Shown piece by piece: positions 2,265 through 14,400 of a stretch of DNA of 64,000 nt; within the stretch, counting starts at the first letter, position 1; each line of letters begins with the position of its first letter. This DNA comes from Lanius collurio. Its lineage: Eukaryota; Chordata; Aves; Passeriformes; Laniidae. Position numbers and translations under genes: made by a program. A model generated the notes under the pieces. The model had not been told where the DNA came from. It saw nothing but the letters and a program-made list of their open reading frames with translations, and did not search any database. Location of the stretch: contig JACBWW010000023.1 in NCBI GenBank assembly GCA_020086605.1, positions 1,305,063-1,369,062 of the forward strand, in the 5' to 3' direction.

Positions 2265-2423
2265 TTAGACCAGGTACAATTGTACACAGCGGCTTCCCAG
2301 GGGCTGTCCATTTTTCTCAGCCACTGCTTTCTTAGCTAGATCCAGGCTTGGGAAAGTCACCAATGCCTCACCACTGGGCTGGCCACTAAAGTTGTAAAGC
2401 ATGAGGATGGAATCTGCTTGGAG
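2265..2423 (-). CDS. ESRP2: ESRP2 alternative terminal exon 15b (completes RRM4)
   Basis: Encodes 52 residues and a TAA stop: [35 protein letters not shown], then SRCVQLYLV. The acceptor TACCATTGCAG has a long, almost pure T/C tract and joins exon 14 (FFQGYQ) in phase 0. SILMLYN reads as strand 2, GEALVTF as RNP1/strand 3, [13 protein letters not shown] as helix 2 and VQLYLV as strand 4, exactly what exon 14 lacks. The product would be 729 residues with four complete RRMs. Transcript use cannot be seen from DNA, but an RRM-like in-phase open frame behind a strong acceptor is unlikely to be chance. Confidence 0.85.
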   Translation of the reverse strand, partial: LQADSILMLYNFSGQPSGEALVTFPSLDLAKKAVAEKNGQPLGSRCVQLYLV

Positions 2424-11400: not shown

Positions 11401-14400
11401 GATGATCTTTTTCCACTGAAAAACTGAGTATGCAAAACTGCTTTCAAAACATAAATGTAACATTCAAAAAGAAGACACAAAAGATAGAGCACTGCATCTT
11501 CCAAAGAGTCAAAACTTGGAACATTCACATTTAAGCATCTATTCTCAGTCTACATTCATTTACACACAGACATCTGGCTCAGAAAATTAAAGCTCATTGT
11601 CTTTTAAGAATCTTAAGGTTAAAAAAAAAAAAAAAGAGGAATAAAGAAAACATACTATGCCTGAATGTTTCCTATTAACTCTAGCAATTTCACTGTTGTC
11701 CAACTTACAGAATGTCGAAGCACAAACATGCAAAAATCGTTGCCTTTTGACACAAATCAATTGCAGTGGTTTGAGAGCCACACAGAGGATTTTAGGTCAG
11801 GGCTTCCAAGCAGTACCCAAAAGGGCAGAGTTGGTAGCTGTGTAAGTGCTGTTACCAACAGGAGTTAAATACTCACCAGAATACACCACATTCAATTATC
11901 TTTCCTTTTAGCAAGCATGTTATGACAAAACATGGATATAGATACAATATCCTCTGAGAGAAAAGGCAGAAGACATGGAAAGAGCCATTCCTTTAATTCA
12001 AATAAGTGCTGCTGGAAAACAATTTTTGTAGATGGTGCCTTTTTTTTTAACATATCAAGAAGGTACATTTCTGTTTGCACACTCGAGAGCATTCCATCAG
12101 TCCACACAGACTGAAGTTACCTATAGTATATTTGCTATCAATATAGACAGCTTGGATAATACAGATATCCTTTAGTTTGCAATGTAATACAGCTTTAATG
12201 AAAGATATTCTTGCCTGTAACCAAAATAATTAGCACTTGAAACAGTGTTTGACTGAGACATCTATCTCTCTCCCTTTCCAAGTCACCACACCCAGCTCAC
12301 AGCTCTCTACAAATGGCAAACTTAAAGTGTTGAAGGTCAAACACTGACCCTACCAAAAGGCTTCCACCATCAAGTGGCCAGGACTGAAAACTTTTGTCAG
12401 CCCGCTTTCCTGTGGCAGACCCTTTGCAGCCCCACTCCCATTGAGGCTCTGAGGTCTTCAAACTCAAACCCCAAACCCAGACACCAAATCACTGCTTCCA
12501 AATGAGGGTTTGTTTATTTAATAAGAAGTAAGGCAAATCGTTTGCTACACTTCAGCTTCAGTCTGCCAGTTAAATATACAACATGCAGCTTGCACACCTG
12601 TTTGGCAATTTCCAAAAGCACTCACTTGTTCAGTTTGAGCTCCATTGATCAATTCTCAGAGGTCCAAATATGATCTCAAGGAGCAGCACTGCATACTAAC
12701 CTGGTACCCCTGGAAGAAACTGAGTATCTCCTTCATTCCTGTGTTATATGGCAAGCCCTGCATCCGGACTAAGGCTCCAGGCTGGGGCAGGATCGGAGTG
12801 TGGGTGGCAGTGGCAGCAGCAGCCACAGCTCCTGGAGGAGCTGCAATGTACCCCACCGTGGTAGGAGATACTGGAGGACTGAAAGAGAAGGAGGAAGCAA
12901 AATTGTTATGAAAATCAATAACTGCTCAGAACAGGCAAAGATGAAATTGAAAATTTAGATTTGAAAATAAACCCAAATCCCACAGAAAAACAAACAGCCC
13001 TGATGTGGATTGCTTTGTGGACTTTCTTAATTTCTCTTAAGCATCTCAATCTATTTTTAAAGAAGGGAGGTTAAGGAAAATAGCTAACATTTGTTAAAGA
13101 CATAAGGAGTGGCATTTGTTATTTCACAGGGGAGTACAAAAAAGTAGCTGCAGATGACTTGTTTTAAGATCATTAATAAAAACAAAGAAATAAAAGGGAG
13201 GGGTGTGTCATAGTATGAAATGGAGGCAAACACCCAAACCTGGCATTTTTGAGCCACAAAATAGTGAGTAATTAGCATCTCCATCTCTGGTCACGGCCCA
13301 TCTAGCAAATTCCCAGATAGTCAAGCTAGCAAGTGTCACAAGCCTAGGAACTATCAGTGAACAAGCTATTTCCCCACAACCCACGTACCAGACTTCAGTG
13401 ACTCATGCTGATACCATCAGTGGGAAGGGAAAAGGTGGAGATCTGCTTTGCTTTCACATGTAAAAATGTTCTTTGTTCTCACTGATATACAAAATCAAAC
13501 CTTGTTTACACCCATGAAGAGTCTTTCAGCATGGAAACAGTATTGAAAGTAAAAGAACAAACTAAGAGGTGAGGGTAGAGGAATGTAATTACACAGCTGC
13601 TCTTTTGGCCTAGAACTGCCTTGATGACATTGTCCCAGTGCCAGAAAACCCCTGTTAAATATTAGGCCAACATTATAAAGAGATTCAAGCAGGACCTACA
13701 GAGGAGATGAACCCCATTACAAAGCACCAGAGAAACACTTAAAATGGTTTCTGCCTCTGCTGCTGAACATCAAGTTCCCAGGAGTACAAATACAAGAGCC
13801 ATTCAGAGGTGACCACCCAGTGAGCTGCTGCACTGGGATGAGAGGTTAAGAGAAGCAGTGAAACCTCGGGGTTACCTGGGATAGTAAGCTGTGTAATTCA
13901 TGTAAAGCTGAGCAGCCTGGGCTGGGTAGTAGGTAACAGCTGGAGGAGCAGCTGCAGAGGCCTGGGGTGTCCTGGTGGTTGGCAAGAGGGCTTGAGGCTG
14001 GTAAAGAGCTGCTGCCTCTGCTGGGATCACAGCTGCTGTTTGGAAAGCTGCATAAGCTGGTGGAGAAAGACCTAAAAACAAACCAGGACACAGCACCAAA
14101 AAGCAATCAGAATGGAGAACTCTCAGATGAATAATTCCTCTCCTACAGCAACATGATCAAAACAATCTGGGCATGCATGATGAACACTTGAGCAAAGACT
14201 GCTCGTTAGCTTCTCCTCGGGAGACCTTTGCTGCATCACCATGAATGACAACTGGGGCATTTGGAATGAGCAATTCCTAATAGTTCACAACTGCTAGAGC
14301 TGAGCATCCTTGTCTATATGCAAATGGAAAGTAGGGAACTTCAGAGTTATTAAAAGAAAGCATAAAGCCATGTGCATAGAGAAAGCAGGCGTGCACACCA

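What the first reader, a model, noticed from the sequence alone, without database searches (positions are those of the whole stretch)
2265..12701. Two alternative last exons of ESRP2 decide whether a fourth RRM exists
Seen: exon 14 ends in phase 0 after RNP2 ([10 protein letters not shown]) and helix 1 ([11 protein letters not shown]) of an RRM. Exon 15a (5289-5378) gives the known short PKEWVCL tail. Exon 15b (2265-2423) is also in phase and supplies strand 2, an RNP1-like GEALVTFP, helix 2 and strand 4, closing the fold. The 15b acceptor has a strong T/C tract, while that of 15a is weak. Known: the standard mammalian ESRP proteins end with the 15a-type tail. Inference: terminal-exon choice toggles a complete RRM4, probably altering RNA binding, and 15a may be the derived form that truncates an ancestral RRM.
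Basis: partly seen in the sequence, partly recalled or inferred. Interest (0 to 1): 0.82.

Follow-up and report, generated by a model that had tools for sequence, protein, structure and literature searches.

The report
Splice switch for ESRP2's fourth RRM
In this bird's ESRP2 gene, a splicing regulator, skipping or keeping one small exon with a stop codon appears to decide whether the protein ends in a complete fourth RNA-recognition-type domain, an ancient domain that has apparently lost its usual RNA-gripping residues in vertebrates.

Summary
Exon 14 (12878-12701) joined to 15b (2423-2265) is in frame and encodes a complete RRM (Pfam E=1.6e-8; AlphaFold pLDDT about 85-96 in the finch orthologue). 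The 15a form has no Pfam match.

Correction: 15a is probably not terminal. A strong donor (AAG|GTAAGA, intron from 5266) lies 22 nt after its stop, so 15a looks like a 112-nt cassette (5378-5267) spliced to the same last exon. Skipping gives RRM4. Inclusion gives the PKEWVCL tail, with a stop too near the last junction for NMD.

The long tail ends 93 of 120 listed hits: ESRP2 models from a ray to a marsupial. A C-terminal RRM4 also occurs in amphioxus and many protostomes, and 23 RRM4s form one clade (98/87).

Residues that grip GGU in ESRP1 qRRM2 are all present in 17 of 31 invertebrate RRM4s but 0 of 87 vertebrate ones, so RRM4 is probably no fourth GGU reader. Use of either junction in this bird is unmeasured.

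The parts
12701..21114 (-). Eight ESRP2 exons (21114-21004, 20128-19996, 19802-19760, 19257-18956, 16990-16769, 15493-15295, 14071-13876, 12878-12701) encoding RRM1-3, linker and first half of RRM4
   Evidence: GT-AG borders and one open frame; matched by finch, duck and turaco ESRP2
12701..12878 (-). Exon 14: linker PPVSPTT... and RRM4 beta1-alpha1 ([25 protein letters not shown]), ends in phase 0
   Evidence: donor CAG|GTTAGT at the 98.7th percentile
5267..5378 (-). Exon 15a, proposed 112-nt cassette exon; coding 5378-5289, stop TAA 5291-5289, then 22 nt to the donor
   Evidence: tail 29/29 identical to turaco P0100
5261..5269 (-). Donor of 15a, AAG|GTAAGA, first intron base 5266
   Evidence: 99.8th percentile of GT sites in the gene span
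2265..2423 (-). Coding part of the last exon, 15b: RRM4 beta2-beta3-alpha2-beta4 and stop
   Evidence: finch 94% identical, duck 87%
1063..2264 (-). Proposed 3' UTR of the shared last exon up to an AATAAA at 1068-1063
   Evidence: Motif listing; 3' end not tested
5063..5207 (-). Two clusters of UGGUGG-type ESRP motifs downstream of the 15a donor (starts 5207, 5206, 5069, 5068)
   Evidence: weak excess, 24 of 928 windows of the same introns reach it

Best explanation
ESRP2 here has one last exon, 15b, and an optional stop-bearing cassette exon, 15a, lying in the intron that splits RRM4. Skipping 15a joins the beta1-alpha1 half (exon 14) to the beta2-beta3-alpha2-beta4 half (15b) and makes a four-RRM protein. 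Including 15a replaces the second half by the PKEWVCL tail. The 15a stop lies 22 nt before the last junction, so the mRNA should escape NMD and both proteins can be made. RRM4 is ancestral to Bilateria; the stop exon is derived and was seen only in vertebrates among the proteins in hand. In vertebrates RRM4 kept its fold but lost residues that grip GGU, so the switch more probably adds or removes a protein-contact or differently specific RNA surface than a fourth GGU reader. Shown: frame, splice-site quality, RRM match, fold prediction, distribution, residue changes. Inferred: use of both junctions in this bird, NMD escape, the role of RRM4, any control of 15a by ESRP itself.
For: RRM match only for the 14+15b join and confident RRM fold in the finch long form. 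Donor AAG|GTAAGA 22 nt after the 15a stop and a weak 15a acceptor, and no poly(A) signal of the two kinds scanned between 5288 and 3812. The corresponding mouse Esrp1 exon 15 is a published cassette with the stop inside it, followed by exon 16 (PMC5478600, passages and section 5). Long tail in 93 of 120 listed hits, PKEW[VL]CL tail in 22, other ends in 5; Sparus, Lates and Mastacembelus list both. RRM4 in 31 invertebrate proteins, 30 of them behind the same PSPPVSP linker, one clade in the tree. Clamp residues: all five in 0 of 87 vertebrate and 17 of 31 invertebrate RRM4s.
Against: No RNA evidence was available; the protein records are largely computed gene models. 15b is the least conserved coding segment of ESRP2 among the three bird or lizard comparisons nearest to the window (87% to duck, 77% to a parrot, 77% to a gecko, against 97-99% for RRM1-3), so the long form may be the less important product. 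In two trees of thought the numbers are not independent: several models per species and near-copies enter the counts. The splice-site matrix is home-made. The short-form fold prediction was too poor to use (mean pLDDT 41).
Confidence: 0.75

Rival explanations
1. True alternative last exons, as first read: the 15a transcript ends at its own poly(A) site in the following intron and the other transcript ends in 15b.
For: 15a carries a stop; AATAAA motifs exist in the intron at 3812 and 3500.
Against: Donor at the 99.8th percentile 22 nt after the stop; no AATAAA or ATTAAA in the first 1.4 kb or so after it; the mouse Esrp1 counterpart is a cassette.
Confidence: 0.12
2. RRM4 is a working fourth GGU-binding qRRM, so the long form simply binds target RNA more strongly.
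For: Its best sequence matches among solved structures are qRRM proteins (hnRNP H, RBM12); many invertebrate RRM4s keep the clamp (20 of 31).
Against: The window's RRM4 has Q, C and Q where qRRM2 has Arg331, Tyr398 and Glu400; aromatic-Arg-Tyr is kept in 3 of 87 vertebrate RRM4s, and in ESRP1 qRRM2 Y398A lost binding while R331A and E400A reduced it strongly (PMC10853802 passages).
Confidence: 0.12
3. 15b is a decaying relic in birds: rarely used, and kept in frame by weak constraint or by chance, while 15a is in effect always included.
For: 15b changes faster than RRM1-3 and than the exon 14 half of RRM4; the ancestral clamp is lost; no placental mammal is named in the 120 listed hits.
Against: Open frame, RRM match and good acceptor here; 67% identity of 15b to a ray after a very long separation; long models in several birds, reptiles, amphibians and many fishes.
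Confidence: 0.2

Closest known systems
Mouse Esrp1 cassette exons 14 and 15 (Yang and Carstens 2017, PMC5478600; passages and section 5 read)
   Same: Exon 15 is a short optional exon with the stop inside it, followed by one more exon; exons 14 and 15 can be skipped singly or together.
   Different: That paper counts three RRMs, all upstream of these exons, and tested localisation only; it does not describe a domain completed by skipping. Whether mouse exon 16 completes an RRM was not tested here.
ESRP1 qRRM2-GGU complex (7vki; PMC10853802, passages read)
   Same: Same domain type; the window's RRM1-3 keep its five key contact residues.
   Different: RRM4 of the window lacks three of the five, and RRM4s form their own clade apart from RRM1-3.
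hnRNP H qRRMs (6dhs) and RBM12 RRMs (2cqp, 2ek1)
   Same: Strongest matches of RRM4 among solved structures: E=8.9e-21 (two domains summed), 2.1e-16, 5.9e-16.
   Different: Other proteins. RRM4 sits in ESRP behind the PSPPVSP linker. hnRNP H and RBM12 were not put in the tree.
Drosophila fusilli C-terminal isoforms (PMC5478600, passages)
   Same: Alternative splicing also changes the ESRP C-terminus in flies, with nuclear and cytoplasmic forms.
   Different: No full RRM4 in the dipteran proteins in hand; some isoforms keep only a beta4-like end.

Membership tests
RRM domain (Pfam PF00076) | Score above the curated cut-off over the full profile | tested here: met
   34.8 bits against 20.7, profile 2-69 of 70, for exon 14 + 15b
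RRM domain (Pfam PF00076) | beta1-alpha1-beta2-beta3-alpha2-beta4 fold | tested here: met
   Predicted in the finch orthologue P0001, residues 686-761, pLDDT mostly 85-96; not solved
GGU-binding quasi-RRM (ESRP1 qRRM2 type) | Arg331, aromatic 335, Arg397, Tyr398, Glu400 | tested here: not met
   Window RRM4 has Q, Y, R, C, Q
GGU-binding quasi-RRM (ESRP1 qRRM2 type) | Binds GGU RNA | not testable with these tools
   Needs titration
ESRP RRM4 lineage | C-terminal position behind the PSPPVSP linker and one clade with other RRM4s | tested here: met
   (the finch orthologue P0001 stands for the window in the tree)
Alternative last exons | Each terminal exon has its own 3' end and no used donor | tested here: inconclusive
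   15a has a strong donor after its stop; no RNA data
NMD-triggering poison exon | Stop more than about 50-55 nt before the last junction (rule recalled) | tested here: not met
   22 nt from the 15a stop to the 15a donor, if that donor is the last

The most novel reading that the evidence does not exclude
ESRP was ancestrally a four-qRRM protein. Vertebrates gained a stop-bearing cassette exon in the intron that splits RRM4, RRM4 lost its GGU clamp and took on another partner, and splicing now toggles that partner in ESRP2, perhaps through ESRP's own binding downstream of 15a. Arthropods may toggle the same domain by skipping the stretch that encodes its first half, as two barnacle models suggest. 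Mammalian ESRP work, done on three-RRM forms, would have missed this.
Probability: 0.35. Interest if true: 0.8.

Novelty: new variant of a known kind. Interest (0 to 1): 0.6.

Why it matters
ESRP1 and ESRP2 set epithelial splicing programmes. A frameshift in ESRP2 is the top candidate for the chicken cleft primary palate mutant, whereas mouse Esrp2 loss alone has no phenotype (PMC7317479, passages). The papers whose passages were read describe three RRMs. A fourth, ancestral, splice-controlled RRM in bird, reptile, fish and marsupial ESRP2, with no placental mammal named in the listed hits, would mean that mammalian work has studied a truncated version of the protein. It also makes testable what an RRM does after it has lost its RNA grip.

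Tried and rejected
Rejected: that 15b belongs to another gene (it is the C-terminus of finch, duck and many other ESRP2 records). Rejected: that RRM4 is a bird novelty. Rejected: that fly fusilli is a fair outgroup for this domain.

Led nowhere: the short-form structure prediction was poor (mean pLDDT 41.3, 19 rows) and says nothing about the half domain. The Foldseek search of the whole long model is not specific to RRM4. The ESRP-motif excess downstream of 15a is weak. dN/dS could not be computed, as no DNA of a second bird was on hand. Lampreys were not sought. Searches for a fourth RRM in ESRP gave 0, 2 and 5 papers; of these I opened passages of two (PMC5478600, PMC4566030), which do not mention one in what I saw; the library lacks most subscription journals.

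Count caveats: 324 proteins were sorted into 121 full RRM4, 33 first half only, 170 neither; the last group includes proteins with an interrupted or second-half-only RRM4. One search used 118 of the 121 (P0092, P0121 and P0323 dropped). The chimeric models P0006, P0007, P0063, P0084 and P0086 were already outside the 121; P0007 (green turtle) does keep Arg-Tyr. Amphioxus is counted with the invertebrates and reads His and Pro at the Arg397 and Tyr398 places. Rows include several models per species and near-copies.

Full report
What is there. The minus strand of the window holds ESRP2. Eight exons from 21114 to 12701 join in one open frame with GT-AG borders and encode RRM1-3, the linker and the start of a further RRM. 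tblastn with bird ESRP2 proteins carries the gene up to exon 1 near 43.7 kb. Exon 14 ends in phase 0 after FFQGYQ, and both 15a and 15b continue the frame. Exon 14 + 15b matches Pfam RRM_1 at 34.8 bits, E=1.6e-8; exon 14 + 15a matches nothing up to E=1. Among solved structures the joined peptide matches hnRNP H (8.9e-21) and RBM12 (2.1e-16) best, and ESRP1 domains at 7.8e-6 and weaker. In the Gouldian finch long form (P0001, 52-row alignment) AlphaFold gives the six RRM elements in order between residues 686 and 761, block means 85-96 from residue 691 on. In three long proteins scanned, from a ray, a gar and the finch, RRM4 is the best-scoring RRM_1 stretch of the whole protein.

What kind of splice choice. 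But 22 nt after the 15a stop comes AAG|GTAAGA, above 99.8% of GT sites in the gene span by a simple matrix; the 15a acceptor is weak (74th percentile) and that of 15b good (96th). No AATAAA or ATTAAA lies between the 15a stop and 3812. In mouse Esrp1 the corresponding exon 15 is a 72-nt cassette with the stop inside it, followed by exon 16 (PMC5478600, passages and section 5). The simplest reading is a 112-nt cassette with a weak acceptor, spliced to the same last exon as the skipped form. Its stop is too near the last junction for NMD by the usual rule (recalled), so inclusion should give a stable short protein. No RNA data were on hand to test this.

Conservation of both forms. A search with the RRM4 region found 307 proteins, 120 listed. 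Of the 120, 93 carry a 15b-type second half, 22 end in PKEW[VL]CL and 5 end otherwise. The 93 include birds, lizards, snakes, a turtle, caecilians, many ray-finned fishes, a manta ray (Mobula) and one mammal, the Tasmanian devil. Sparus, Lates and Mastacembelus appear with both tails; Menidia too, but its long model has an odd insert. No placental mammal and no ESRP1 is named in the listed rows; rows are 90% clusters and 187 hits were not shown. Many records are computed models.

Result against a leading role of RRM4. In the duck, parrot and gecko comparisons 15b is less conserved (87, 77, 77%) than RRM1-3 (99, 98, 97%), than the exon 14 half of RRM4 (100, 96, 96%) and than the linkers. The 15a peptide is 29 of 29 identical to a turaco and 23 of 29 to the ghost shark Callorhinchus, against 67% for 15b to the ray. 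The short form may be the more constrained product.

Ancestry. A profile of vertebrate RRM4 finds a C-terminal fourth domain in 31 invertebrate proteins: Lingula, a mayfly, a locust, Trichinella, horseshoe crabs, a scorpion, ticks, gastropods, a cephalopod, annelids, a priapulid, a barnacle, Daphnia, amphioxus and four unnamed ones. In most of these it outscores the same protein's RRM1-3; P0141 is an exception. In 30 of 31 it follows the PSPPVSP linker of vertebrate exons 13-14. A tree of 92 RRMs from 23 proteins (25 chosen, two skipped for lacking four clean hits) puts RRM4 in one clade, 98/87, apart from RRM1, 2 and 3, each also one clade. The tool warns of few columns and of long branches that meet, the chordate RRM4s among them. 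Position and linker support the same conclusion. RRM4 is thus ancestral to Bilateria, and the PKEWVCL form, seen only in vertebrates among the proteins in hand, is derived. No search was made for 15a in invertebrates as such.

Other changes to the same domain. No dipteran, ant or decapod protein in hand was classed as having a full RRM4. 44 proteins, mostly dipteran by name where named, end in a short N-[QSN]-[YC]-VEL-type or SQYVELFIV tail resembling the last strand of RRM4. Four named spiders and two termites keep only the second half, and the barnacle Amphibalanus has one model with the full domain (P0252) and one without the first half (P0267). A flounder ESRP1 (P0125) matches only in the first half.

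RNA binding. In ESRP1 qRRM2, alanine at Phe335, Arg397 or Tyr398 lost RNA binding, and at Arg331 or Glu400 strongly reduced it (PMC10853802, passages). The window's RRM1-3 keep all five positions (aromatic at 335); RRM4 reads Q, Y, R, C, Q. Aromatic-Arg/Lys-Tyr/Phe is present in 3 of 87 vertebrate and 20 of 31 invertebrate RRM4s; all five in 0 of 87 and 17 of 31. The vertebrate domain is therefore probably not a further GGU reader. That it contacts protein or another RNA is inferred only.

Control. Four UGGUGG-type motif starts in two clusters lie within 250 nt downstream of the 15a donor and none within 250 nt upstream of 15a; 24 of 928 background windows reach that count. By the published ESRP map, binding downstream favours inclusion (PMC4566030, passages). 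Self-control is a lead, no more.

Novelty. ESRP2, its alternative C-termini and the long models in databases are known. Searches for a fourth RRM in ESRP brought up no paper that by its listing is about one; subscription journals are mostly missing. The ancestral RRM4, its toggle by a stop-bearing cassette and its lost GGU clamp appear undescribed within that limit. I score it as a new variant of a known kind: new domain anatomy in a known regulator.

Noticed in passing
window 15307-15289 (minus strand): Two GTAAGT donors 12 nt apart (exon ends 15307 and 15295) would add or drop CKLP, the same choice that switches mouse Esrp1 between nucleus and cytoplasm (PMC5478600); it seems kept in this bird ESRP2.
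   Followed up: partly
P0210, P0144, P0132 and 41 other proteins: Many dipteran fusilli isoforms without RRM4 end in NQYVELFIV or NSCVELYIS, resembling the last strand of the lost RRM4: a possible vestige or a retained end motif.
   Followed up: partly
P0252 and P0267 (Amphibalanus amphitrite); P0269, P0272, P0273, P0275 (spiders); P0271, P0277 (termites): Barnacle models with and without the first half of RRM4, and spider and termite models with only the second half, suggest that arthropods cut the same domain at its other half.
   Followed up: partly
P0006, P0007, P0084; window 5300: Pigeon, green turtle and king cobra models splice from inside 15a (TGG|GTCTGT, first intron base 5300 here) to 15b, which would insert 26 residues into RRM4; probably gene-finder artefacts that avoid the stop.
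   Followed up: partly
P0107, P0108 (Bubo bubo): Owl models read from exon 14 into the intron (GYQVSMQS...), a third possible ending that also cuts RRM4.
   Followed up: no
window about 47240-47640: A run of unknown bases flanked by GGAAG-type simple repeats, apparently an assembly gap.
   Followed up: no
window 31664-31472 (minus strand): Stretch with stops resembling residues 53-112 of the Gouldian finch model P0001; that part of the finch model looks like a mispredicted exon or a repeat.
   Followed up: no
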